This document shows, piece after piece, positions 1 through 10,668 of a stretch of 64,000 nucleotides of DNA (position 1 is its first letter; each line of letters begins with the position of its first letter). Origin of the DNA: Crocinitomicaceae bacterium (GTDB taxonomy: Bacteria > Bacteroidota > Bacteroidia > Flavobacteriales_D > Crocinitomicaceae). The stretch lies in assembly GCA_024643365.1 (NCBI GenBank), contig JAHENC010000020.1:1-64000 (forward strand). The letters are read 5' to 3'. The notes beneath the pieces were generated by a model. That model was not told where the DNA came from, did not search any database, and saw nothing but the letters and a program-made list of their open reading frames with translations. Position numbers and translations under genes: made by a program.

Positions 1-69
1 GATAAACATAATACATATCAATGAAACGAGAATTTTTAGAAAATATTTCACTAAAAACTATAGATGTGA

Positions 70-178
70 CCGCCGTAGTTATCCTTCGTTTTTGATTCTC
101 ATAATATACGATGCTTCACAAGTGGACGGGTCCGCCGTAGCTCGCCTTCGTTTTTGATACTCAAAAACTTCGGCGAAC
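70..178. repeat. Two direct copies of a hairpin-forming repeat
   Basis: Two related units start with CCGCCGTAG at 70 and 132. Each continues into CCTTCG-TTTTTGA. The second unit (140-178) completes a stem-loop with arms GCTCGCC/GGCGA and TTTTTGA/TCAAAAA. The first loses its right arm after about position 101. A third, better copy at 232-270 serves as a terminator and is listed separately. This looks like a small family of palindromic intergenic repeats, or duplicated terminators. No gene is recognisable in 1-231, apart from an unconvincing 22-codon ORF at 21-89. Confidence 0.6.
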
Positions 179-225
179 TAACTCGCTGAAAGTGAAAAGA
201 TTTAAGTTTTGGAAATGGATTAAAT

Positions 226-270
226 AAAAAAGCTCGCCTTCGTTTTTGATTCTCAAAAACTTCGGCGAGC
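226..270 (-). terminator. Hairpin terminator, probably the original ssrA terminator
   Basis: On the minus strand the arm GCTCGCC (270-264) pairs with GGCGAGC (238-232). An inner stem TTTTTGA/TCAAAAA closes on a 3-nt loop, with a small internal loop between the stems. The 3' arm is followed directly by six T residues (231-226). This is the form of a rho-independent terminator reading leftward. It begins 4 nt beyond the ssrA-like 17 bp at 275-291, so it most likely terminated tmRNA transcription before an element was inserted between them. Confidence 0.7.
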
Positions 271-274
271 GAAG

Positions 275-291
275 GTGGAGCCGGAGGGGTT
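275..291. repeat. Left attachment site (attL), 17-bp copy of ssrA 3' end
   Basis: The sequence GTGGAGCCGGAGGGGTT is identical to 8152-8168, which covers the discriminator base, acceptor-stem strand and start of the T arm of the tmRNA gene. After it the match continues as GAA where ssrA has CGAA. A copy of the 3' end of tmRNA at the far side of an integrase-bearing segment is the expected footprint of site-specific integration. Confidence 0.75.
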
Positions 292-365
292 GAATTAAAT
301 TATTTTAAACCCTGTTTATCATATACTTAAATAACATCAAGATAACTTGTTGACTCAATGTTGAT

Positions 366-1520
366 TCAAATACTTTTTATATTTTTTTGTATTAAAACCT
401 CCATCAACTTCTCAAGTACATTATCCTTGTAAGTGATCTCTAAGAAATTGATGTTGTTCTTAGTCAAATAGTCTTTTTTAATCTGATCGCGACGTTGATT
501 TTCGGCAAGTGCTTCAGCGCCTCCGAAGCTTTGAACTACTTCATAATGTTGTCTGCCGTGGAATTCGATTACGGTGTTTTGTTCTGGGAGGTAGAAGTCA
601 CATTTTAAGCGTCTTCTGTCTTTGAGGTCGGGGAAGGTGTACTGTTGGATAAACGCAACTTGATGGAACTCCAAGAAACGTTTAATTTGTTCTTCACCCT
701 TAGAACTGTTACAGTTTGGGCAGCCATTTCCACGTTGATGGTTATTTGGCGTTTGATAAAATTCTCCATGTTTAGGACAAATCAACTTAACCATTTTTTT
801 ACCACCTTGGTAATCAACTTGACTGTAATCATATTTCTCTCCGTGGACTAATATGCTGTCCTGAATAAATTCTTCAACACCTTTAAGTTGAAGTTTATGT
901 TGATCTATTATAGCGCATTTAGGACAAGTACTCCCTGTTAGATGATTTTGAGGTTGTTGATCAAAAGCATCGTGAGATGGGCAAATGATAGTCACTTTCG
1001 TAAATTGATTTACATAATTGACTCTACTGTAATCGAATTTATATCCATGTATTTTTCGTGACCTTTCCAAAAAAACTTCAATACCTAATTGTCGCTTTTG
1101 ACTTTGTTTGGTCGCTTTTGCTTTTCCGCAGATAGTACAACCTTGTTTCCCATTTACATGCGAATCGGCATTTTGTTCAAACCAGCCGTGTTCAGGACAA
1201 TTAATTTTGACTTTTGCAGACATTTTCGTGTAGGAAGATCGATCATATTGATATTTATTCATATGAATTTCATTAGCCTTCAACAGAAACAAATCAAAGC
1301 TGACCCTTCTTAGTTTGGCAGCATTTCCTCTCCCACAAATCGGACATCCATGTCCTCTTTTAAGTTGATCGAGAGCACTAAAAAACGAACCGTGAATGCG
1401 ACATATGAGTTCTACTTTTGTTCTACTTGATTTATAAGTTAGATTAGAATAGTCGTATAGTTCACCATGGACACTTTTAATAATGTTCAATACTTCTATT
1501 TGATTAAGTTTTTTAGCCAT
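366..1520 (-). CDS. Zinc-repeat (DUF723-type) protein with C-terminal Vsr/PD-(D/E)XK-like nuclease
   Basis: The protein has 384 aa. It carries four tandem copies of about 65-70 aa (roughly residues 15-62, 85-132, 157-200 and 225-271). Each has the pattern HG-x2-YDYS, then KVxxxCPxHGxF, then a closing CPxC, so each probably binds one zinc through Cys/His. After residue 275 comes a nuclease-like region with CDFYLP, VIEFHGRQHY and a later Lys-rich helix. This resembles Vsr/EDxHD-type endonucleases attached to DUF723 repeats in phage and mobile DNA. The expected role is DNA binding through the repeats and cleavage by the C-terminus, as a homing-type or defence nuclease; no target can be inferred. 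It is the last gene before the left att site, and the start is the ATG at 1520. Confidence 0.65.
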   Translation of the reverse strand: MAKKLNQIEVLNIIKSVHGELYDYSNLTYKSSRTKVELICRIHGSFFSALDQLKRGHGCPICGRGNAAKLRRVSFDLFLLKANEIHMNKYQYDRSSYTKMSAKVKINCPEHGWFEQNADSHVNGKQGCTICGKAKATKQSQKRQLGIEVFLERSRKIHGYKFDYSRVNYVNQFTKVTIICPSHDAFDQQPQNHLTGSTCPKCAIIDQHKLQLKGVEEFIQDSILVHGEKYDYSQVDYQGGKKMVKLICPKHGEFYQTPNNHQRGNGCPNCNSSKGEEQIKRFLEFHQVAFIQQYTFPDLKDRRRLKCDFYLPEQNTVIEFHGRQHYEVVQSFGGAEALAENQRRDQIKKDYLTKNNINFLEITYKDNVLEKLMEVLIQKNIKSI

Positions 1521-1736
1521 TTAATCCTTATTTTCCTAAAAAAATCTACCCTTCCTTGTCACCCTTTATCTTTGTATTTTTTACCAAGACGAGACGGTAA
1601 CGGGAATTGTAAATTATTCCAATGCCTTTTATGAAAATTGTGAACTTGGGATACACGATGGATGTAATCAATATCAACGAGCATGTAATCGATGATAGAT
1701 CATAATAAGATGTCAGAGTCACTGTGTATTTTAAAG
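1521..1736. other. Intergenic gap in the element with plus-strand promoter box and 27-codon ORF
   Basis: The gap lies between two minus-strand genes. On the plus strand TATCTTTG at 1567-1574 matches the Bacteroidota -7 box TAnnTTTG. Downstream are a small GGGAAT/ATTCC stem and an ORF from ATG 1622 to TAA 1705 (27 codons, starting MPFMKIVNLGY). Such a transcript would run antisense into the 3' end of the next gene. It may be a small RNA or peptide gene, or chance; nothing in the peptide is recognisable. Confidence 0.2.
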
Positions 1737-2735
1737 CTAAAAGATTAAACTTTTTTCTGTTAAATGTTCCGAGTCATCCAATTCACATAGACTAATCTCT
1801 ATTGGATACGTGTAATTACATAATTCAAGTATTTCTTCTAGGACTCTCTCACCATTCTCAATACAAGCGTAAATTTCCTCTGTTACAACTTCTTTAATTT
1901 TCGATTTAATCTTCTCATCAAAATCATTCATTAATGGATGGAAATCATGTCCTATAAAATTGTCATCATTATCAATTGTTCTATGCCATTTGATTAATGA
2001 ATGATCACCTATTATTTCAAAATCATTAAAATCTAGTTCGTCATCTTTTAATAATTTCTTCAAGATATTTTTATCATTAACTGGGAAATGTACAGAATAT
2101 TCTAAATACCAATAATTGTTCAATATATTCTCTTCAAGTTCTAATTGTTTTTCTTCATTTATTTCTTCAACAATTTTAGAAATTTGAATTCCATGATTTT
2201 TTAGTTGCGATAATGAACCAGATGAGAATAAGAATTCAAATTCTTGTACCTTTTCATCAAAATATTCTCTTATATAAGATTGTATTTCATGTTCAATTTT
2301 TCTTTTATCCTCGGGATTTAAAATGTCACAAACTAAAATATCATTATATCCATCTAGATATAAAATTGAAATATTTTTTTGATTAAGTTCTCGTTTTTTA
2401 CTATCCAAACTTCTCAACTTACTATCTAATATTTCTCTATATCTCCTGAAATTATTATTTCCAAAATTATTTGAAAGTTTTAGTAAAGTTTCGTTTTTTT
2501 CAGATTCTAAGTCAAGTCTAATATTCCTAAAGTAGAATTCAGATATTACTTGAAAGGTTTCGTTTAATTTATCATGCCAATACAAATCAAAATCTAGTTC
2601 TCTATGTTGGTTTTGATCTGAACGAGGGTAATCTAAATTTTTCAACTGTAAGTCAATAAATTCCCGACTAAAATCTTGAAAAAGAATCTTGAAGTTTTCA
2701 ATTTTTGCTGATGTAAAAATTATGGATGGGTTCAT
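1737..2735 (-). CDS. Unrecognised 332-aa acidic, helix-rich protein of the element
   Basis: I do not recognise a family. The protein is rich in Glu, Asp, Asn and Lys. It has long predicted helices (about residues 85-120 and 150-215) and no signal peptide or membrane segment. The C-terminal third contains a compact mixed region (HSLIKWHRTIDNDDNF, then HDFHPLMNDFDEKI) ending in an acidic tail. It starts 40 nt after the stop of the DUF262/DUF1524 gene on the same strand, so the two are probably co-transcribed and may act together. Very low GC matches its upstream neighbour rather than the host genes, which fits horizontal acquisition. It could be a sensor or inhibitor partner of the GmrSD-like protein, but this is only inferred from position. 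Confidence 0.6.
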   Translation of the reverse strand: MNPSIIFTSAKIENFKILFQDFSREFIDLQLKNLDYPRSDQNQHRELDFDLYWHDKLNETFQVISEFYFRNIRLDLESEKNETLLKLSNNFGNNNFRRYREILDSKLRSLDSKKRELNQKNISILYLDGYNDILVCDILNPEDKRKIEHEIQSYIREYFDEKVQEFEFLFSSGSLSQLKNHGIQISKIVEEINEEKQLELEENILNNYWYLEYSVHFPVNDKNILKKLLKDDELDFNDFEIIGDHSLIKWHRTIDNDDNFIGHDFHPLMNDFDEKIKSKIKEVVTEEIYACIENGERVLEEILELCNYTYPIEISLCELDDSEHLTEKSLIF

Positions 2736-2775
2736 AAGTCAAGTTGTTAATTATTTCAATAATATCCTCTTTAAA

Positions 2776-4548
2776 TTAAAAGTCCCATATTTTGGTATAT
2801 GCTTCTTTTGCTAAATCTAATGATCTAGCTTTAATTTTGTCAAAATCCCAATTAATTGAATCAGTTTTATATTTATTGATAAAGTCATCTATATACCGGA
2901 GGTTTCCAAAATACTTTTTATCCGATTCGATTTTTTCAATTTTTTGAAAAGGTTTAAGATCACCAAGTGCTGAATTTGTATGACGACTTATGACGATCAA
3001 ATTTCCAATTTGATTAAAAAATTCCTGTTCTTCTTCTGTATATTGCTTTTTAGCACTTTGGGCATAAAAATGCTCTATATTGTAATTTCTCTTAGTTACA
3101 TCAATTTCAGGCCTATATATTGGCACATATTGAGCCCCCTTAGCGCCGAAATTATTTATTCGGTCAAAAACATAATTTATTAACGAATAGTTTTTTGCAT
3201 TGTAAATAACGGTGTCAATAAAATTAGATTCAAATTCTGCCCTAATTGCTTTTTTGGTTTTTAAAATTTTGAGAAAAGCTTCAATTTCAACGGAAAAACT
3301 TCTTGTCGAGTTATAAATTTCTGCGGCTTTTTCAGCATATAATTTTTCAACTTCATTTCCTACTCGACCTGATATTACATTGTTTATAAAATGATAATTT
3401 TCAATTGCCTTTAAAGCTTTAAAAAGCAATTCCGCCTTTGATTTTTGATCTTTTCGGTATAAATGAAAAATAGAGTAAATTAATGGCATGGGTTGAGAAA
3501 CACGAAATAACTTTAACGCTTGAAAGGTTCTACCGATTCTACTGTAATAATCTTCATTTTTAGCAAGTTCATTTAAATTGAATTCTTCTAACCAATCTTT
3601 TTTATTTTCAAAAGACAAAGAATTGGACGATTTAAAAAAACGTGAAAAATTGTATAAATCTTCTATAAATATAGAAATCCCTTCTTCTGTTGTTGTTTCA
3701 TCTCCATCTAATTCCTTAACATAAAGTTTTAAACTATTATACAATTTAGATTGCTGAATATAGCCCTTCCTAGAAACCCAAAAATACTTTAACATTCTTG
3801 GCAGTTGGCCATTGGCGTTTTCAACAATTTCCGGCCATTTTTCCTCAATTGTCTGGTCTTGATATGATAGAATATAATTTTTAAGTAAATCTCCTATATT
3901 CAAGTCCAATCCTCTTGCATTTGTCCTTTCAAAAACCGAAAAAACATCTTGTGTGTTTTCAACTTTAATCACAACAACGTATGAATCCCAGACAGCATTT
4001 ATAAATTCTGAAAGCTCATCAACATTAAAATCTTTAATTGTTGATTTTATGAAAGAATAAATTGGTCGTATTCTATTGATTTGACGTTTGACAGTTTTTT
4101 GTAATATTTTATCTGGAAATTCACCATTCCAATCAGGGTCAGCCATATATTCATATAGCTCTTTTATATTCGGTGAAACCTCGAACTTTATTGCATTTTT
4201 TTTACGTACCTTGGAATATGTACTTATGAATTTTTGAACTTCTTCTTGAACTTGAGGTTCATTTAAATATCGGGCATGTTCTCTCAATGCAATGAATAAA
4301 ATGGAGAGACTTGTAAGTCTTTGTTGACCATCTACAATCTCAAAATTCTGAGAGTTTGAAACGTCAAAAATAAAGTTACCGAGAAATAAATTACCATTGA
4401 TAGTTCCTTTAATTTGCATTAAATCTTCCATCAAATCCTGCAACTCACTTTTTCCCCAATCGTAAGATCTTTGATACTTAGGGACAGAATATTTAATGCG
4501 GTCGCTCCCTAGTATTTCATCAATCGTTTTTTTTTCTGGTACAATCAT
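2776..4548 (-). CDS. DUF262/DUF1524 protein, GmrSD-like (type IV restriction-type) nuclease
   Basis: This 590-aa protein has the two-domain layout of GmrS-GmrD fusions. The N-terminal DUF262 (ParB/Srx-like NTPase) domain shows VPKYQRSYDW at 22-31, the conserved DGQQRLTS at 74-81 and FERTNARG at 206-213. The C-terminal DUF1524 domain shows an HNH-type site: IEHFYAQ near 491-497 followed by IGNLIV and NSALGDLKPF. Family members cleave modified (for example glucosylated) phage DNA in an NTP-dependent way, or act within larger defence systems such as SspE or BrxU. Which DNA this one recognises cannot be read from sequence. All key motifs look intact. It lies 18 nt after the small HTH gene and 40 nt before the unknown 332-aa gene, in one minus-strand unit. 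Confidence 0.8.
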   Translation of the reverse strand: MIVPEKKTIDEILGSDRIKYSVPKYQRSYDWGKSELQDLMEDLMQIKGTINGNLFLGNFIFDVSNSQNFEIVDGQQRLTSLSILFIALREHARYLNEPQVQEEVQKFISTYSKVRKKNAIKFEVSPNIKELYEYMADPDWNGEFPDKILQKTVKRQINRIRPIYSFIKSTIKDFNVDELSEFINAVWDSYVVVIKVENTQDVFSVFERTNARGLDLNIGDLLKNYILSYQDQTIEEKWPEIVENANGQLPRMLKYFWVSRKGYIQQSKLYNSLKLYVKELDGDETTTEEGISIFIEDLYNFSRFFKSSNSLSFENKKDWLEEFNLNELAKNEDYYSRIGRTFQALKLFRVSQPMPLIYSIFHLYRKDQKSKAELLFKALKAIENYHFINNVISGRVGNEVEKLYAEKAAEIYNSTRSFSVEIEAFLKILKTKKAIRAEFESNFIDTVIYNAKNYSLINYVFDRINNFGAKGAQYVPIYRPEIDVTKRNYNIEHFYAQSAKKQYTEEEQEFFNQIGNLIVISRHTNSALGDLKPFQKIEKIESDKKYFGNLRYIDDFINKYKTDSINWDFDKIKARSLDLAKEAYTKIWDF

Positions 4549-4566
4549 TTTTTGGAATTTATATGC

Positions 4567-4806
4567 TTACAATCTGTTACGTTCAATGTAAATATCTTGA
4601 ATTTTTTGATATATGCCCATTTTCTTTTCCAAAACTTTAACAATTTCAGCCAAAATTTTTACATTGTTTGAACGTTGATTTAACACATTATAAACAGTTC
4701 CTCTATTGCATTTTAACGTTTTTGCTATGTTAGTAACGTCTCCATAGCTTAAAAACAGCTTAATTTGATCTAGTATTTCTTGTGAAAGTTGATTTTTCTG
4801 GTTCAT
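4567..4806 (-). CDS. Small helix-turn-helix protein (79 aa)
   Basis: The short protein contains one helix-turn-helix at about residues 14-50. The recognition-helix stretch is NIAKTLKCNRGTVYNVLNQR, which resembles resolvase/Fis-type HTHs, followed by a basic helix. It begins 1 nt after the Rep stop codon and ends 18 nt before the DUF262/DUF1524 gene, so it sits at the joint between the replication module and the cargo. A likely job is transcriptional control of the element or of the cargo, possibly a copy-control repressor. There is no enzymatic motif. Confidence 0.6.
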   Translation of the reverse strand: MNQKNQLSQEILDQIKLFLSYGDVTNIAKTLKCNRGTVYNVLNQRSNNVKILAEIVKVLEKKMGIYQKIQDIYIERNRL

Positions 4807-4807
4807 T

Positions 4808-5821
4808 TTAATAAAGTGTTGGTTTTAAAAAAGACAATTGAACTCCTATTTTTTTGATTTTCATTTCTTCATATACTTTTGGATGTAATTTCAGATCATG
4901 CAATACATCTTTAGCATTTGGAATCCAATATCCGAAAATAGTTATTGGATCGTTTTCTTTTTTGGTGTCTGAATTATCAATCTCAATAACTCCAGTTTTT
5001 AAATTGAAAAATACTTCATTTAATACTTCCGAAGGATTTCGTGAGGATGTATGAATTAGTTCAGCTATTACAGGCTTGGATAATTCTTGTGCCAACTTGG
5101 AAATATTGTATCTGTTTCCTTCAATAGAGTTATTTTCATCTTTCGTAATATACTTGGTAACATATTTACTTGCATTTTTAACCGATAGGACATTTGGCAA
5201 CACCTGTTTAAATTCATAGTTATTCTTTTGGTACCATTTCCTAACAATCTCAGACCAAGCTTTATTAATGATTTCTTTTGGGATATAGTTTGGCGTTACA
5301 ATATGAAAGTGTATCGCGCCTCTCTTTTGCTTCTCTGCAACCCACAAATACATGAAATTACTAGTGTGTCTATTCATGCGCTTTAAAAAATGATCCAAAT
5401 GAATTTTTGAAAATCGATCATCTGGATAATGCATTGGATAACTTAAGGTAATCATGGAGCATTTTTTTGATCGACTCATACCGCTTTTAACGTAATGATC
5501 AAACATTCTGCAAACCCGTTTTATTTTTGATTTAGCTGAATCAGTTAAACTTGTTCTCTCCAATCTTTCTTTTCTAATTGGCGGAGTTGGCTTGGGCTTA
5601 CCTTCATAATCAGGGAATTTAAACGTCACTAGAGCTTCACCATTAATGTACTGTTTGTAATTGATATCCGCGGTGAGATTTGGGACATTAGATAAACCTA
5701 CTTTATTATCCGTGTACACCCACTCCTCCTTAGAATTTTTTGAATGAAATTTTTTATTCATGAGTCGTTTTTTATTTGATTTTTTTATTGTTGAGTTTAT
5801 AGAGAGCTTCTCCCAAGCCAA
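4808..5821 (-). CDS. Rolling-circle replication initiator (HUH Rep, ORF2/G2P-like)
   Basis: This 337-aa protein has the ordered motifs of a REP ORF2/G2P-type HUH endonuclease. ITLSYP at about 124-129 is motif I. YLWVAEKQKRGAIHFHIV at about 158-175 holds the metal-binding His-171/Phe/His-173. ASKYVTKYITK at about 217-227 provides the catalytic Tyr (Y220 and/or Y224). Such proteins nick one strand at an origin hairpin and start rolling-circle replication, as in filamentous phages and small Bacteroidota plasmids. Its presence means the excised element probably replicates as a circle. The first 100 residues are basic and less conserved. A hairpin in the 87 nt upstream is a candidate nick site. 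The start is the ATG at 5821. Confidence 0.75.
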   Translation of the reverse strand: MAWEKLSINSTIKKSNKKRLMNKKFHSKNSKEEWVYTDNKVGLSNVPNLTADINYKQYINGEALVTFKFPDYEGKPKPTPPIRKERLERTSLTDSAKSKIKRVCRMFDHYVKSGMSRSKKCSMITLSYPMHYPDDRFSKIHLDHFLKRMNRHTSNFMYLWVAEKQKRGAIHFHIVTPNYIPKEIINKAWSEIVRKWYQKNNYEFKQVLPNVLSVKNASKYVTKYITKDENNSIEGNRYNISKLAQELSKPVIAELIHTSSRNPSEVLNEVFFNLKTGVIEIDNSDTKKENDPITIFGYWIPNAKDVLHDLKLHPKVYEEMKIKKIGVQLSFLKPTLY

Positions 5822-5908
5822 AAGATTAATTCTGACAAGGGAGATTCAATCGATCTTCCGTATGTGGTGATCGCCCTCTCTGAGTTGCTCTCCAGCAGAG
5901 CTCAGTTT
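5822..5908. other. Candidate rolling-circle origin with hairpin
   Basis: This is the gap between the excisionase-type HTH gene and rep. It contains GCTCT-ccagc-AGAGC (5887-5901), a 5-bp stem with partial flanking complementarity (TGAG/CTCA). HUH initiators nick near such hairpins and often have the origin just upstream of rep. The site is proposed from position and structure only; no nonanucleotide typical of a known Rep family could be recognised. Confidence 0.3.
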
Positions 5909-6166
5909 CTAACTATTTGTAAGTAGTTTATTCAATTCGGATGAACTGAAATATAATTTATGACCGATTTTACGGCCTTTAATTTTACCTTGTTTTCGGT
6001 AAGTCCAAAGCGTAGTTTGACCGATACCAAGAAAGTCAGTAGCTTCCTTGGTGTTTAACCATTCTTTTTCTTGATCTGGTGGACTCTCTTTATTTGCTAA
6101 GAGTTGATCAATTTTCTCAATCAGATGATCTAGTTGGGATTTTGTGATAATATATGCCTGTTCCAT
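5909..6166 (-). CDS. Excisionase-type HTH_17 (MerR-like) DNA-binding protein
   Basis: The 85-aa protein has a coiled N-terminus (about 1-33) and a winged MerR-like helix-turn-helix at about 35-80. The stretch EWLNTKEATDFLGIGQTTLW is followed by YRKQGKIKGRKIGHKLYF, which is the classic HTH_17 / excisionase-family signature. In Bacteroidota mobile elements these small proteins sit between the integrase and the replication genes and act as recombination directionality factors or regulators. Here it lies 68 nt after the RteC-like gene and 87 nt before rep, matching that layout. Confidence 0.75.
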   Translation of the reverse strand: MEQAYIITKSQLDHLIEKIDQLLANKESPPDQEKEWLNTKEATDFLGIGQTTLWTYRKQGKIKGRKIGHKLYFSSSELNKLLTNS

Positions 6167-6209
6167 TTTGATTATTTTGGAACAAACTAAAGGAGATTAA
6201 AATATTAAG

Positions 6210-6229
6210 GGGTACACAGGGTATACACA
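6210..6229. repeat. Tandem GGGTACACA / GGGTATACACA motif
   Basis: Two near-identical units lie head to tail in the gap before the excisionase-type gene. Short tandem sites here could bind the HTH_17 protein or Rep. The evidence is position and repetition only. Confidence 0.25.
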
Positions 6230-6233
6230 ACTT

Positions 6234-6815
6234 TTATTTTTCGAACATATTTCTTTTGTTTTTTAATCTTTCCATCCAATTTTCCATGAATGCGACGCAC
6301 TTGTTATAATCATTTAAATCCATGTCATCTGAATTGGATAATCGTGTTCGGATATTATCAGATGAGATTCCAAATAAAATACTAAGACCGTCACCAAGTT
6401 CAGTTTTCCGGTCATTAATGCAGTTAATTTCTCGAAGATGATCAAATAAAAACGCAATATGTTGTGCAGTTAGATCACTAAATTGCTTTCGTGGTGTGGT
6501 AACTACAATCTGTTTACCTTGCAGTCTTGAAATGACTTCTAAGAATATTTTCTCGACACTATCCTTTATCTGTTGGTCAATTCCATTATTTGCGTTTAGG
6601 AATTTTGATAGTTCAAATTGCTTTTTACTCAATTCACTTTCCTGATATAGTCGTTCTGACGAACTTGAAAGTTGTTCTTTTTTACCTATTTCAATGTCAT
6701 TTAAAATTTGATCAATAATTTGATTTAAAATCACTTCGTTGATTTGAGTATTGTGAAATGTTAATTGAAGGCTTGAGGCTATTCCATTTATCGATAAGTC
6801 AACTAGTTTTTCCAT
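6234..6815 (-). CDS. Unknown 193-aa element protein, weakly RteC-like
   Basis: The N-terminal half (about 1-100) is helical and charged, with no recognised domain. The C-terminal half contains LTAQHIAFLFDHLREINC, then LSILFGISSDNIRTRLS and a terminal amphipathic helix. This pattern recalls the C-terminal domain of RteC-type regulators and other proteins next to Bacteroidota integrases, but the resemblance is weak. It starts 2 nt after the integrase stop, so it is translated from the same transcript, and it probably regulates or assists excision. There is no signal peptide or membrane segment. Confidence 0.5.
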   Translation of the reverse strand: MEKLVDLSINGIASSLQLTFHNTQINEVILNQIIDQILNDIEIGKKEQLSSSSERLYQESELSKKQFELSKFLNANNGIDQQIKDSVEKIFLEVISRLQGKQIVVTTPRKQFSDLTAQHIAFLFDHLREINCINDRKTELGDGLSILFGISSDNIRTRLSNSDDMDLNDYNKCVAFMENWMERLKNKRNMFEK

Positions 6816-6817
6816 GT

Positions 6818-8011
6818 TTAAAGTTTTTGATTTAATAGTTTTGCGAACTCAGACATGGATTCATTTAAAACCTTAGCATAGATCTGAGTTGTGGCAATAT
6901 CTTTATGCCCTAGCATTTTAGAAACCACCTCTATGGATACGTTATTTGCTAGAGTAACAGTCGTAGCAAATGTGTGTCGAGCCATGTGAAAAGTGAGGAT
7001 TTTATCGATCTTGCTGAAATCTGCAATGATCTTCAGATAAGCATTGACTTTTTGATTACTTCTCAGAGGCAATAATTTACCTGTAATCTCTGCTTCTTCT
7101 TTATAAAGTTCAACAATCTCTTCCGCTCTGTTCAATAAGGGAATCCGATGGAAATCTCCAGTCTTTTGAATTTCCTGTATCTCAATCCATTTATTGCCAT
7201 TTGCATCGGTTATGATACACTTCGGCGTTAGTTTATCGACGTCTGTAAAACGTAGTCCTGAATAGCATGAGAAAAGAAAGATATTCCTAACTCGATTTAG
7301 GCTTTCGTTTGATAATTCAACTTCTTTAATTCGATTTAACTCGTCAAAAGTCAAAAATGTGCGATTCGTACGCTCATGCTTGAATCTTAGATTTTGCATA
7401 GGATTGTTGGCCAATTTGCCAAATTCTATTGCCCTGTTAAAAACTGTCTTGAGTAATTTTAAATACTTAGTTGTGGTATTTACAGAAAGTTGAGATGTTG
7501 TTTTTAGATAAAATTCTAATTCTTTAATGTGCTCTGGCTTTACCGCATTCATGCTGATATGCAATAATTGCTTTGACGCTAAAAATCCTGTGAGATGTTT
7601 TTGAATGGTTTTATACTTCTTGGCGGTTGAATCTGAGTATTCGGGGAGAAGTTTAATTTGAGCAATGTATTCTGCTAAATAATCAAGAAGCTTCGTGCTT
7701 TTATCCTTGATATTTAGGAAATCATTTTTTATTTCAATGGAGGAGGGAATTCTACCTTCGGAAATAATCTTATTTCTAATCTCATTTAACCGATTGTAAG
7801 TTGAATTCAGTTTAGCGGTTAATTCAGGATCTCCCTTAATCGTTTGACTTCCTTCACTCCATTTCTTCGGATCAACAAATTCTCTTAATGCAAATTCGGC
7901 TTTCTTTCGATTGATATTAATTCTACAGTAAATTGGATGAAGTCCATTCTTGGCTCTCGCTGGGACAGTTACGAACTTCACTGTAAAAGATAGTTTATTC
8001 ATAGGGCTCAT
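6818..8011 (-). CDS. Tyrosine recombinase / integrase of the ssrA element
   Basis: The protein has about 397 aa, the usual length for Bacteroidota phage-type integrases. It has an N-terminal arm-binding region (about 1-95), a SAM-like core-binding domain (about 100-200) and a C-terminal catalytic domain. The catalytic residues are visible: Arg in SGLRFTD, Lys in QKTGDFHR, the HMARH box, and GHKDIATTQIY with His and the nucleophile Tyr. It should catalyse integration at, and with a directionality factor excision from, the tmRNA 3' end 140 bp away. An upstream TTG (8023) is in frame, but ATG 8011 or ATG 8002 is more likely. The RteC-like gene follows 2 nt downstream. Confidence 0.9.
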   Translation of the reverse strand: MSPMNKLSFTVKFVTVPARAKNGLHPIYCRININRKKAEFALREFVDPKKWSEGSQTIKGDPELTAKLNSTYNRLNEIRNKIISEGRIPSSIEIKNDFLNIKDKSTKLLDYLAEYIAQIKLLPEYSDSTAKKYKTIQKHLTGFLASKQLLHISMNAVKPEHIKELEFYLKTTSQLSVNTTTKYLKLLKTVFNRAIEFGKLANNPMQNLRFKHERTNRTFLTFDELNRIKEVELSNESLNRVRNIFLFSCYSGLRFTDVDKLTPKCIITDANGNKWIEIQEIQKTGDFHRIPLLNRAEEIVELYKEEAEITGKLLPLRSNQKVNAYLKIIADFSKIDKILTFHMARHTFATTVTLANNVSIEVVSKMLGHKDIATTQIYAKVLNESMSEFAKLLNQKL

Positions 8012-8012
8012 T

Positions 8013-8082
8013 TGTTGAAACAATTCAATTATGTTGAATCATTGTAGAGCCAAATTAGAAAATAAATGAATATGTTGAAACA
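8013..8082. promoter_or_regulatory. Three TGTTGAA(A/T)CA repeats upstream of the integrase
   Basis: The 10-bp motif occurs at 8013-8022, 8032-8041 and 8073-8082, all in the same orientation, between the integrase start and the ssrA junction. Directly repeated short sites in this position are typical of integrase arm-type binding sites or of an operator controlling int. Confidence 0.4.
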
Positions 8083-8094
8083 TTATTGAAAGAA

Positions 8095-8147
8095 AAAGAT
8101 TCGGTAACTACTTGTAAACAAATGTTTTCAAATAGTTCCGAATCTTT
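8095..8147 (-). terminator. Element-borne hairpin just 3' of ssrA
   Basis: A perfect 10-bp inverted repeat (CCGAATCTTT at 8138-8147 and AAAGATTCGG at 8095-8104) is extended inward by TAGTT/AACTA. On the minus strand its 3' arm runs into TTTTTCTTTC. It begins 5 nt after the mature tmRNA end, so it would terminate ssrA transcription now that the original terminator has been moved to 226-270. It could instead, or also, be a core-type integrase site. Confidence 0.55.
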
Positions 8148-8151
8148 AATT

Positions 8152-8168
8152 GTGGAGCCGGAGGGGTT
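8152..8168. repeat. Right attachment site (attR) within the ssrA 3' end
   Basis: Direct repeat partner of 275-291. It covers the discriminator position, the 3' acceptor strand and the start of the T-stem of tmRNA, so integration leaves a complete tmRNA gene. Confidence 0.75.
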
Positions 8169-8551
8169 CGAACCCTCGTCCAAACGACGAGTTTTCAAGC
8201 TTTCTACATGCTTATTCCTCGGTTATTTTTCGATCCAGGCACGGACAAGAACACCCAAAACCTGAACTTAGGTACTGAATTTCGCATTTGCTTAGTACCG
8301 TCGCAAACACTAGCCTAATGGGATGAACTTTCGAGTGGTAAATCGATTAGGCGACGATCTACCGAAAGTACTTGTCCAACCTACTGTGCTTCAGTCGGAT
8401 TAAGCCAATTAACATTCAGCTAATTAAGCAGCAAGTGCGTATGACGTGTTGTCAATTATTGTTCGAGACAAGATATTTAAGAGGTTCACCTCAACCCTCT
8501 GCATGCTGACACTTGACTACCGCTATCGCTGTCAAATCCAAGGTCGGCCCC
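8153..8551 (-). ncRNA. ssrA: Transfer-messenger RNA (tmRNA)
   Basis: The 5' end GGGGCCGACCUUGGAUUUGACAG (minus strand from 8551; first bases quoted) is diagnostic of tmRNA. Its GGGGCCG pairs with CGGCUCC near 8154-8160 to form the acceptor stem. The T arm shows GGGUUCGAACCCC. The CCA is not encoded and must be added. The tag reading frame ends YALAA-stop: the codons for DNTSYALAA run from about 8453 to the TAA at 8426-8424, with GAC the probable resume codon. The 399-nt length is normal. tmRNA with SmpB rescues stalled ribosomes and tags the products for proteolysis. An integrative element abuts its 3' end. Confidence 0.95.
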
Positions 8552-8617
8552 ATTGAATGCAAAGATACAAGGAAATTCGAGATGATTTTTGTATCCATCA
8601 CAGATACCTGAAACTAA

Positions 8618-10459
8618 TTATTTAATAACGGTTACAAAACCTTGGTACAATTCCTTAACGGTATCGCCAGGATTAAAGTATAACATGTAAGTATACACTC
8701 CGTCCAAAACAGGAAGACCTGATCGCTCGTCTTTTCCATCCCATTTCAGTTGGGTCGGTGAAAAGGTACAAATCACATTGCCCCAGCGATTGAAAATCCA
8801 ACCACGCTCCACTTTTCCATTTTGAATGATGATTTCAAAGGTGTCGTTTACCATATCGCCATTTGGTGTGAATACGTTTGGAATATAGATGACTGATGGC
8901 TCGATGATACATTCTTCCAATTGAACATTGACCGTATGTATAAAATCACAGCCATTAGACGTTTGCTCAACTTGTGAGAGTGATTGTGCACCAAAAATCC
9001 ATTGATTAAATACTAAAACGGAATCAAATTCACATAAGATAATGTTTTCCGTTAAGGGTACAACTGGATAAAAACTCAAGTTCGCGATGTGTGTACTGTC
9101 GCATTGATTCATGTCCATGAATGCCGCAGAATATTGTCCCGGTGCGTTTTCCCAAGTTCCATTGATTAATGCAGAATCACCCGGACAAATAGTCAAAGAT
9201 TCCGAAGTCGTTTGTGGCGTGCAACCATTTGTTACTACGATGGAAATACATTGTATATCTGCACACGCACCTGATCCCAGTTGATAACATACTTGCCAAG
9301 TTCCAATTCCTGCTACTTGTGGATTAAACATACCATTTGAAGACAAACATGTTCCGCAAGTGGATGACCAAACTCCTCCCACATTCAACGCTTGAATTTG
9401 TTGTGCAGGGTCTTGGTTCGTAAATGGACCCGATGGAGAAATAGTAGCATTTGAACCTTGTGTTCCTGCAGTCACACTAAATGTTTCAATTACGGAACAT
9501 CCGTTTGCTCCAGTAACGGTTACGGTATAATTTCCCGGACAAACATTCGCAAGTGCACTTGTCGTTGCTCCGGTCGACCAATTATACGTGTAGGGTGCAA
9601 GACCGTTCGTAACCGAAGTTTGAATGGAACCATCGCATAAATTGAGACACGTTTCATTGGAAATTACTGGTGTAATTGTCATTCCTGGATTCACGCTACA
9701 AAGTGGATTCATGCTTCCAATCCACGCATCATTTGCTGCATTATTTGCCATTCCGGGTGTTTGTCCAGTGACAACATCTGAACTTGTCCAGTTTGCGACC
9801 AAATTCCAATCGTTTGATGTTGTATTCGTAAAGGAAAACACTTTTCCGGCGGCTGATCCGGCAAAATAAACGATGGCATTTGTTGAATTATTTCCCCAAC
9901 TCACACTGTGGAAAGGAACTCCAGTCGATGGAATATTCGGAACTTGAAAAGAATCGTCGGAATTAGACATTGCTAATGGTGACCAAGACCCACCTACTGT
10001 CCAATTGGCATCTGGTGGATATGCTTGATTCGTAGTTGTAGGACTCACCGTTGTTTTTTCCAACAACATAGAATTAGCTGGAATCACCAAACGGCAATTT
10101 CCATCAGCCATGGTATTATCATCTGGAGGTAAACTTGTGTTTGGACTCGCATCATTGTAGATAACAATATATGTTCCTTGTGGAATGCTTTGCCAAAATG
10201 AGATGTTTGCAAATCGAACCGCTCCGCCTGCTATCCCGGTACCTGATCCTGGTGCAAAATAGCCATTGTTGTCATCAATTATGACTTTTCGCAAGTCTAA
10301 ACTTGGAACCGGAGTGACACATGTTGGTGTTCCAATCACAACCAATTCAACATATTCACTTGAACCTGTTCCTTGAGAAACTTCATTTATGATTAATTGT
10401 TGTGCTTCAAATCCTCGAAACAAAAACAACAATACACTCAGAATTAATCCTTTATTCAT
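8618..10459 (-). CDS. Secreted lamin-tail/SprB-repeat protein with T9SS type B sorting domain
   Basis: The start is taken as ATG 10459 (MNKGLILS), which gives a signal peptide ending FEAQ. An in-frame TTG lies 6 nt upstream. The N-terminus (about 20-200) looks like a lamin-tail/LTD-type domain (LIINEVSQG, SSEYVELVV). A SprB-type repeat follows at about 265-330 (GLAPYTYNWSTGATTSAL, PGNYTVTVTGANGCS). The last 90 residues are a CHU_C / gliding-motility type B sorting domain (IPNVFTPNGD, FNRWGN, WDGKD, DGVYTYML). Such proteins are exported by Sec and then T9SS and anchored or released at the cell surface. A -7 box (10544-10551) gives a leader of about 80 nt. Confidence 0.85.
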   Translation of the reverse strand: MNKGLILSVLLFLFRGFEAQQLIINEVSQGTGSSEYVELVVIGTPTCVTPVPSLDLRKVIIDDNNGYFAPGSGTGIAGGAVRFANISFWQSIPQGTYIVIYNDASPNTSLPPDDNTMADGNCRLVIPANSMLLEKTTVSPTTTNQAYPPDANWTVGGSWSPLAMSNSDDSFQVPNIPSTGVPFHSVSWGNNSTNAIVYFAGSAAGKVFSFTNTTSNDWNLVANWTSSDVVTGQTPGMANNAANDAWIGSMNPLCSVNPGMTITPVISNETCLNLCDGSIQTSVTNGLAPYTYNWSTGATTSALANVCPGNYTVTVTGANGCSVIETFSVTAGTQGSNATISPSGPFTNQDPAQQIQALNVGGVWSSTCGTCLSSNGMFNPQVAGIGTWQVCYQLGSGACADIQCISIVVTNGCTPQTTSESLTICPGDSALINGTWENAPGQYSAAFMDMNQCDSTHIANLSFYPVVPLTENIILCEFDSVLVFNQWIFGAQSLSQVEQTSNGCDFIHTVNVQLEECIIEPSVIYIPNVFTPNGDMVNDTFEIIIQNGKVERGWIFNRWGNVICTFSPTQLKWDGKDERSGLPVLDGVYTYMLYFNPGDTVKELYQGFVTVIK

Positions 10460-10543
10460 TGTCAATAGTCGACATTCAATTTTATTTTGGTTTCGGTGCT
10501 AACAGGTCGTTCACCTCAAGGAGTTCAAAACAAAATTTCAAAG

Positions 10544-10551
10544 CAAAGGTA
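10544..10551 (-). promoter_or_regulatory. Promoter -7 box TACCTTTG
   Basis: It matches TAnnTTTG on the minus strand and lies about 85 nt before the start of the T9SS type B gene, in the divergent gap shared with the fucosidase gene. Confidence 0.4.
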
Positions 10552-10668
10552 CTTCAACTATCCGAATTAAATCGACTAAGCGTATGATAAAATTGTTAAG
10601 TATGGAAGGTATTCTATTCTGAAGCAAGTACTTTAAAGCTGAGAAATTCTGATTAATTAGAGAATTTG

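What the first reader, a model, noticed from the sequence alone, without database searches (positions are those of the whole stretch)
275..8168. Compact ssrA-targeted integrative element carrying a rolling-circle Rep
A 17-bp direct repeat of the tmRNA 3' end flanks eight same-strand genes with an integrase beside ssrA. The element combines a tyrosine integrase, an HTH_17 excisionase-type protein and an HUH Rep but has no transfer or virion genes. That layout resembles a phage satellite or mobilisable mini-element, and I know of no named family with exactly this gene set.
Basis: partly seen in the sequence, partly recalled or inferred. Interest (0 to 1): 0.7.

Follow-up and report, generated by a model that had tools for sequence, protein, structure and literature searches.

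The report
Small mobile island with defence genes
This is a 7.9-kilobase mobile DNA element inserted at the end of a housekeeping RNA gene; it carries its own integration and copying genes and probable anti-phage genes, and it resembles other small elements in related bacteria.

Summary
A 17-bp repeat of the ssrA 3' end (275-291, 8152-8168) bounds a 7,877-bp insert with eight minus-strand genes. Four same-genus genomes show the empty site: matches to the left flank and to ssrA overlap by exactly 17 bp. Genes: tyrosine integrase, an unknown protein (u193), an HTH_17 protein, an HUH-type Rep, and probable defence cargo (GmrSD-like nuclease, HNH-type nuclease); no transfer or virion family was matched.

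It is not a one-off. Of 78 Rep loci kept from named genomes, 34, all Bacteroidota, have a related integrase within 4 kb upstream on the same strand. Of 28 with a tRNA/tmRNA after the cargo, 26 carry a 13-23 bp repeat of its 3' end; 26 measured elements span 5.6-7.8 kb; 18 of 29 loci tested have a PADLOC match in the largest cargo ORF, without a background control. The window element differs in att orientation, integrase lineage and Rep. It works like a PICMI satellite or Rep-encoding IME but fails PICMI's primase and fis criteria. Activity and transfer route are untested. New variant of a known kind.

The parts
1..274 (.). Chromosomal left flank: sequence that follows ssrA in the empty site, including a strong hairpin at 232-270
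   Evidence: Colinear with G015, and its right part with G246, G220 and G002, directly after ssrA; hairpin z -4.0
275..291 (.). Distal att copy, 17-bp direct repeat of the ssrA 3' end
   Evidence: Exact match, 2 sites in genome
366..1520 (-). Zinc-ribbon array plus HNH-type endonuclease (the C-terminal part looks Vsr-like to me; that label is recalled), cargo
   Evidence: DUF4379, DUF723; phrog_559 HNH endonuclease 8e-75, phrog_9084 homing endonuclease 5e-28; PDC-S69 8e-5
1737..2735 (-). u332, unknown protein downstream of the GmrSD-like gene, mosaic halves
   Evidence: No family match above cut-off; 3 homologs besides itself; halves of different descent
2776..4548 (-). GmrSD-like nuclease (GmrSD_N + GmrSD_C), probable anti-phage cargo
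   Evidence: PF03235 3e-31, PF07510 7e-13; HEC-06 3e-61
4567..4806 (-). 79-aa HTH protein, one base after Rep
   Evidence: Weak HTH matches only, none above the Pfam cut-off
4808..5821 (-). HUH rolling-circle Rep; start probably ATG at 5761 (317 aa, as in P0001); HUH motif H171-F-H173, tyrosines Y220 and Y224
   Evidence: PF23343 1e-15; phrog_3419 6e-26; conservation; predicted structure with weak but consistent HUH-nuclease hits
5909..6166 (-). HTH_17 excisionase/AlpA-type protein
   Evidence: PF12728 6e-13; phrog_66 excisionase 6e-9
6234..6815 (-). u193, in the slot held by RteC or ORF2 proteins in related elements
   Evidence: No family match above cut-off; 6 homologs; weak profile match to ORF2 C-terminus and to the RteC-slot proteins
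6818..8023 (-). Tyrosine integrase (likely start ATG 8002, inferred)
   Evidence: PF00589 1e-18, PF13102, PF17293; 84% identical integrase (344 aa, cut by a contig end) beside ssrA in G020
8152..8168 (.). att copy inside ssrA (3' end)
8152..8551 (-). ssrA (tmRNA), left intact by the integration
   Evidence: ARAGORN, RF00023 130.7 bits

Best explanation
A compact integrative element. Shown by comparison: it inserted into the 3' end of ssrA, leaving ssrA intact and duplicating 17 bp. Inferred: the tyrosine integrase recombines the element's att with ssrA; the HTH_17 protein, with the u193 protein in the RteC-like slot, directs excision; the HUH Rep nicks the excised circle and replicates it by rolling circle through Y220/Y224; transfer between cells depends on a helper (phage particle or conjugation machine), because no gene for either was recognised. 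While resident, the GmrSD-like nuclease (perhaps with u332) and the HNH-type nuclease protect the host against phage or rival elements. By gene order and size it belongs with a recurrent kind of 5.6-7.9-kb Bacteroidota elements, each an integrase-regulator-Rep chassis with, in many cases, a defence cassette. Its integrase comes from the lineage seen in RteC islands of the host family, so it is a mosaic.
For: Empty sites with exact 17-bp overlap. Only two att copies in the genome. Family assignments. Rep model: top Foldseek hits are AAV Rep nuclease domains (E 6e-4, target TM 0.45, query TM 0.27), and the small SIRV1 protein 2x3g reaches target TM 0.65; that these are HUH nucleases is recalled. 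Rep not found in the 239 other family genomes, as expected of a sporadic arrival. Same integrase (84%) at ssrA in G020. Recurrent block: 34 of 78 Rep loci have an upstream same-strand integrase; 26 of 28 with a tRNA/tmRNA have repeats of at least 13 bp, against 3 of 521 random stretches. Iteron-like repeats before rep in 13 flavobacterial elements suggest a live replicon there. 18 of 29 loci have a PADLOC match in the largest cargo ORF.
Against: No excision, circle, replication, transfer or defence was observed. No iterons were found upstream of the window's rep, and the hairpins there fold only modestly better than shuffles (z -1.9 to -0.6). The Foldseek matches are weak: only 2 of 1560 have E up to 0.001, and unrelated folds follow closely. 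No background control was run for the PADLOC counts. G020 has the integrase but no detected Rep, so Rep is not bound to this integrase, unless it lies in unassembled DNA. Window Rep is only about 25-32% identical, in best segments, to the Reps of the named-genome elements (40% over a short piece in L043), and the att orientation is reversed relative to them. Of 4 Rep-positive phylum genomes fetched (of 6 found besides the window's own), only 1 has a detectable integrase next to Rep.
Confidence: 0.72

Rival explanations
1. Phage satellite: the excised, Rep-amplified DNA is packaged by a helper phage, as PICMIs are, and the cargo hits competing phages.
For: Layout and size like PICMI115 (6,110 bp, 17-bp repeats, int, a gene of unknown function overlapping int, AlpA/HTH_17, replication gene, defence cargo; passages read). 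Narrow size range 5.57-7.83 kb among 26 related elements. Defence-like cargo.
Against: No phage-derived gene was recognised; cos/pac sites were not searched for. No TerL_ATPase match in the genome.
Confidence: 0.3
2. Integrative mobilisable element: Rep doubles as relaxase and the nicked strand leaves through the conjugation pore of a co-resident element.
For: In 124 Streptococcus genomes 118 of 144 IMEs encode RCR-initiator-like putative relaxases, 35 of these without a coupling protein (PMC5704250, passages). The Rep is of HUH type.
Against: No coupling protein was recognised; oriT was not searched for. The Bacteroidetes IMEs named there as mobilised by ICEs (Tn4399, Tn4555, NBU1, NBU2) encode MobP. 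No TraG-D_C match in this genome, though that profile rang in only 4 of 14 control genomes and not in the Bacteroides one.
Confidence: 0.3
3. Integrated rolling-circle plasmid that moves only passively (transformation, vesicles, general transduction).
For: Distant Rep relatives sit on 12 small plasmids (846-10,318 bp, 21-58% of the Rep covered). A tandem 5.2-kb duplication in Riemerella (L043) looks like a plasmid multimer.
Against: A shared regulatory block and dedicated att sites argue for an evolved excision programme.
Confidence: 0.15
4. Decayed remnant of a larger ICE or prophage that kept a few genes and no longer moves.
For: The integrase groups with those of RteC islands, which are apparently larger.
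Against: All eight ORFs are open. Both att copies are identical. Other elements of the same size and order exist.
Confidence: 0.1
5. Provirus of a filamentous (inovirus) phage.
For: Rep matches PF23343 (ORF2/G2P); weak matches to Inoviridae and Spiroplasma phage Reps.
Against: No Zot/pI, coat or other virion family in any of the eight proteins beyond noise; recognisable cargo is nucleases.
Confidence: 0.02

Closest known systems
PICMI phage satellites of Vibrionaceae (PMC10803314, passages read)
   Same: About 6 kb, 17-bp repeats, tyrosine integrase, extra gene directly after int, AlpA/HTH_17-type regulator, one replication gene, small defence cargo, no capsid genes
   Different: Replication by a DUF3987/DUF5906 primase, not an HUH Rep; integrates beside fis, not ssrA; spread in phage particles shown there, untested here
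Streptococcal IMEs with RCR-initiator-like relaxases (PMC5704250, passages read)
   Same: Integrase plus RCR initiator, no conjugation pore, some without coupling protein
   Different: Rep_Trans, Rep_2, PHA00330 or Viral-Rep initiators in Firmicutes; defence cassette not part of the definition
AICEs such as pSAM2 (PMC3218068, passages read)
   Same: Tyrosine integrase mostly at tRNA 3' ends, RDF, rolling-circle Rep; window Rep matches RepSA below cut-off (4e-6)
   Different: AICEs encode an FtsK-like Tra; none matched here
   Same: Gene order in the circular form, size, att at tRNA/tmRNA 3' end, defence cargo in many
   Different: Window Rep distant; integrase of another clade; ssrA on the int side rather than the cargo side; no small ORF between HTH_17 and Rep
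RteC genomic islands of the host family (L203-L216)
   Same: Related integrase (36-41%), in 11 of 14 a tRNA (Asp, Leu) or tmRNA directly upstream in the same orientation, HTH_17-like gene matched in 12 of 14
   Different: Second gene RteC (PF09357 4e-38 in the one scanned), then a 210-260-aa protein and an AAA-like protein (3 of 3 scanned, below or at the cut-off) instead of Rep; no second att found in the stretches fetched (0 of 11)

Membership tests
Site-specific integrative element | Integrase, flanking direct repeats, empty site in relatives | tested here: met
PICMI | Tyrosine integrase and AlpA/HTH_17 | tested here: met
   PF00589, PF12728; criteria from PMC10803314
PICMI | DUF3987/DUF5906 primase | tested here: not met
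   No such match; Rep PF23343 instead
PICMI | Integration beside fis | tested here: not met
   Integrated at ssrA
PICMI | Packaged by helper phage | not testable with these tools
   Needs phage infection and particle DNA
IME | Integration/excision module, no conjugation pore | tested here: met
IME | oriT or relaxase used by a helper | tested here: inconclusive
   HUH Rep could act as relaxase; oriT was not searched for
AICE | FtsK/SpoIIIE Tra protein | tested here: not met
   No such match in the eight proteins
AICE | RepSA, RepAM or Prim-Pol replication protein | tested here: inconclusive
   RepSA 4e-6 but below the curated cut-off
Inovirus | Zot/pI morphogenesis ATPase | tested here: not met
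   No match listed at E up to 1
   7.88 kb, just above the range; 17-bp repeat
   ssrA is on the int side
   Groups with RteC-island integrases, 100/99 support, in a tree of 39 rows; those rows were picked among the nearest to the window's integrase

The most novel reading that the evidence does not exclude
Bacteroidota harbour an unnamed phylum-wide class of 5.6-7.9-kb satellites that combine a tRNA/tmRNA-targeting integrase, an RteC-slot regulator, HTH_17 and an HUH Rep, are amplified by rolling circle, and are carried by phages or conjugative elements. Each shuttles about one anti-phage system, so that part of the turnover of defence genes in these bacteria rides on this one chassis. The window element is a divergent member with a swapped integrase and inverted att.
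Probability: 0.4. Interest if true: 0.8.

Novelty: new variant of a known kind. Interest (0 to 1): 0.56.

Why it matters
If the class is real and active, it supplies a vehicle for defence-gene spread in Bacteroidota, for which I found no described satellites, and a minimal replicon in which helper dependence can be tested with a handful of genes. The interchange of the Rep module, the integrase lineage and the cargo between elements would make modular evolution of hitchhiking elements directly traceable.

Tried and rejected
Rep, u193 and family searches in viral and plasmid collections: only distant relatives, so packaging is neither shown nor excluded. The 15-kb IMG/VR contig L186 has a Rep-related 480-aa protein but no match to the window's integrase.

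Unique-element idea rejected: the int-Rep block recurs. Inovirus provirus rejected for lack of Zot and coat genes. AICE and PICMI membership rejected on defining features.

u193 as RteC: weak only (hhalign probability 61% with ORF2, 17% with the RteC-slot proteins); left as a slot analogy. Window origin of replication: no iterons, only modest hairpins. RteC islands: no second att found in the fetched stretches (0 of 11). Solved-structure sequence search for the GmrSD-like protein and for Rep: nothing useful. Helper genes in the host: no TraG-D_C or TerL_ATPase match, weak negatives because the controls rang in only 4 and 3 of 14 genomes. The genomic context of the nearest Rep and u193 relatives (P0001, P0041 and others) could not be fetched. 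Paper searches (10, listed in the report) found no description of this Bacteroidota set; the library lacks most subscription journals.

Full report
OBSERVATION. The 17-bp repeat GTGGAGCCGGAGGGGTT lies at 275-291 and 8152-8168 and nowhere else in the 2.53-Mb genome with up to one mismatch. The right copy is the 3' end of ssrA, a tmRNA gene at 8152-8551 on the minus strand. Between them lie eight ORFs of 79 aa or more, all on the minus strand. The insert is A+T-rich: 31.5% G+C against 38.8% for window 8601-64000.

EMPTY SITE. DNA of window 1-10600 was searched in 86 same-genus genomes, own genome included, with at most three candidate stretches scored per genome. In four others (G015, G246, G220, G002) the matches to the left flank (ending at 291) and to ssrA onward (from 8152) adjoin with an overlap of exactly 17 bp, as expected if 275-8151 had been added. 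The window starts at base 1 of its contig. The last 121 bases of contig C13 equal its first 121, and with C13 added the left flank is colinear with G015 for 3.0 kb up to the att site. G215 instead has two att copies 169 bp apart, 152 bp between them, perhaps the scar of another visitor. The insertion itself is therefore shown; its activity is not.

PARTS. In transcription order from ssrA: tyrosine integrase (PF00589, 1e-18; arm-binding and SAM-like domains); u193, no family match; HTH_17 protein (PF12728, 6e-13; excisionase profiles in PHROGs); Rep (PF23343, 1e-15; phrog_3419, 6e-26); a 79-aa HTH protein one base after Rep; a GmrSD-like nuclease with both domains (PF03235, PF07510; PADLOC HEC-06, 3e-61); u332, no family match; and a zinc-ribbon/HNH-type endonuclease (phrog_559, 8e-75). 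No relaxase, coupling, pore, capsid, terminase or Zot family was matched beyond noise. An AlphaFold model of Rep from 24 aligned sequences (mean pLDDT 76.6; block means 90-97 over residues 121-220) has AAV Rep nuclease domains as its best Foldseek hits (E 6e-4, query TM 0.27, target TM 0.45), and 2x3g, a small SIRV1 protein, at target TM 0.65. Only 2 matches have E up to 0.001, so this is supportive rather than strong. The motif GAIHFHI (H171, H173) and Y224 are invariant or so, and Y220 nearly so, among 24 relatives. Naming these the catalytic residues, and the fold hits HUH enzymes, rests on general knowledge.

DISTRIBUTION. The Rep was not found in the other 239 genomes of the family. Of 398 others of the order, one gives a 26-residue match at E 8e-4, which I treat as noise. 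It has 40 relatives in a 5.8-billion-protein set, the nearest 92% identical. u193 has six. One Rep relative (P0009) and one u193 relative (P0043) both have a longest contig of 135,525 bp, which suggests, by length only, that they lie together. G020, of the same genus, has an 84% identical integrase next to ssrA, cut off by a contig end, and no Rep found in its assembly, so this integrase may carry other contents.

A RECURRENT KIND OF ELEMENT. A profile of the Rep family (A1) in named bacterial genomes matched 93 stretches, of which the best 80 were kept, 78 distinct loci. In 34, all Bacteroidota by record title (Flavobacterium, Arenibacter, Winogradskyella, Pontibacter, Rufibacter, Ginsengibacter, Sunxiuqinia, Daejeonella and others), an integrase related to the window's lies upstream of Rep on the same strand, within 4 kb. 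In the 84 loci compared (78 plus 6 viral) eight integrase matches lie elsewhere. I picked by hand the tRNA or tmRNA after the cargo in 28 of the 34; ARAGORN found none in the other six. In 27 of these 28 a repeat of its 3' end was found upstream of int, in 26 of at least 13 bp. With L045 (no repeat; int near the locus end) left out, 24 of 27 repeats lie 177-306 bp before the integrase match. Random 68-base stretches gave 13 bp or more in 3 of 521. Element sizes, for 26 loci (L045 without a repeat and L037, a near-copy of L036, left out), are 5.57-7.83 kb, median 6.55 kb. The L079 value rests on an 11-bp repeat of chance length, though in the usual place, and L060 and L066 on repeats unusually far from int. 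The search for repeats was limited to 2.5 kb before int. Targets: tRNA-Met in 13 of 28, otherwise Gln, Leu, Phe, Asp, Arg, Glu or Ser; in Daejeonella L079 it is ssrA. Between int and Rep lie, in most, an ORF2 (not seen in L035, L045, L048, L057, L060, L066), an HTH_17 protein (matched in 3 of 3 such proteins scanned, one of them below cut-off) and usually a 70-100-aa protein.

CARGO. 65 larger cargo ORFs from these loci and L052 (one of them a fragment) include type II methylases and endonucleases, reverse transcriptases, OLD/AriA-type ATPases, AbiTii, Abi_alpha, McrBC and two GmrSD proteins; non-defence families such as an EamA transporter occur too (only the first 25 families of each list are shown). 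The largest cargo ORF was then scanned in 29 loci: 27 of the 28 (without L037), L046 (no tRNA found) and L052 (Rep without an integrase match). 18 match a PADLOC model at 1e-5 or better, 17 of them among the 27. 11 do not: L034, L042, L047, L052, L066, L068, L070, L071, L077, L079, L103. No background rate was measured, and PADLOC holds broad methylase and ATPase models, so 18 of 29 is not a tested enrichment. In 13 flavobacterial elements, chosen for their similar Reps, the stretch before rep is strongly conserved and holds, by eye, repeated AACCTTTAAT-like units, which look like iterons of a working origin. No such repeats precede the window's rep, and its hairpins are unremarkable.

RELATION OF THE WINDOW ELEMENT TO THIS KIND. 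Circularised, both have the order att-int-ORF2/u193-HTH_17-Rep-cargo. They differ in three ways. The target gene lies on the int side in the window and on the cargo side in the others, so the att core is inverted. The Rep is only about 25-32% identical in best segments (40% over a short piece in L043). The integrase groups (100/99, 39 rows) with integrases of islands in the host family, which run int - RteC-slot gene - HTH_17 - 210-260-aa protein - AAA-like protein, in 11 of 14 directly after a tRNA-Asp, tRNA-Leu or tmRNA. Only one of the RteC-slot genes was scanned and it is RteC (4e-38); the AAA matches (3 of 3 scanned) are at or below cut-off. Those rows were chosen among the nearest integrases, so the grouping is partly by construction. 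G211 has such an int - 307-aa protein - HTH_17 set next to ssrA. The window element is best read as a mosaic: an RteC-island integrase front with a rolling-circle Rep and defence cargo.

PREVALENCE AND COUNTER-EVIDENCE. In 392 Bacteroidota genomes (own included) 7 have a Rep match at 1e-10, so the Rep is not common. I fetched four of the six others. L217, apparently the same contig as L035, has the integrase next to Rep. L218 holds a Rep fragment, and L219 and L220 have Rep without a matched integrase. The window Rep matches 7 phage records and 12 plasmids, all distantly; the Rep of L059 matches no phage record and one plasmid weakly. The satellite reading therefore has no virome support.

MECHANISM. 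Shown: insertion, att duplication, intact ssrA. Inferred from families: integrase-driven integration and excision; HTH_17 as directionality factor; u193 as an RteC-like regulator (weak profile support only); rolling-circle amplification by Rep; helper-dependent transfer. The cargo's defence role follows from GmrSD homology and from the cargo of the related elements; it is not tested.

COMPARISON WITH THE LITERATURE. I read passages, not whole papers, of PMC10803314 (PICMI), PMC11389934 (hitchers), PMC12324425 (Charybdis elements, no replication gene found, a different thing), PMC3218068 (AICEs) and PMC5704250 (IMEs). PICMIs are the nearest working analogy but require a primase and fis. Rep-encoding IMEs are known in streptococci (118 of 144, PMC5704250). 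I found no description of the Bacteroidota set in ten searches of an open-licence library that lacks most subscription journals; this does not prove that it is unpublished.

VERDICT. A real, cleanly delimited mobile element. New variant of a known kind. The wider pattern it led to is the more interesting result.

Noticed in passing
L182 1031-1216 (G215 C38): Two copies of the 17-bp ssrA att 169 bp apart with 152 bp between them; maybe the scar of another element.
   Followed up: partly
window 1737-2735: u332 is mosaic: alignment columns 1-200 are 60% identical to P0049 and 27% to P0048, columns 201-338 are 32% and 88%, as if halves were exchanged.
   Followed up: partly
L043 9211-18528: In Riemerella columbipharyngis a unit with Rep is repeated in tandem at 5,224 bp spacing, with identical ORF lengths.
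   Followed up: no
window 366-1520; L221, L222, L223: The zinc-ribbon endonuclease has partial copies at other loci of G218, G002 and G215 (77%, 78% and 64% amino-acid identity over 224, 138 and 36 residues), with no match to the window's integrase in the stretches fetched.
   Followed up: partly
window 1-121: Identical to the last 121 bases of contig C13, so C13 and C16 are probably neighbours in the chromosome.
   Followed up: yes
window 77-273: A 43-nt hairpin-forming repeat (CTTCGTTTTTGA...TCAAAAACTTCGG) downstream of ssrA in two close copies (93%) and one diverged copy (65%), seen in relatives too.
   Followed up: no
L210, L212, L215, L184: In the host family other islands with int and a gene in the RteC slot, and an HTH_17 match in three of the four, also sit at ssrA, so ssrA looks like an integration hot spot.
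   Followed up: partly
L046 11083-14787: A related Rep element in Arenibacter carries a 1,234-aa protein matching the Tmn defence model (3e-79).
   Followed up: no
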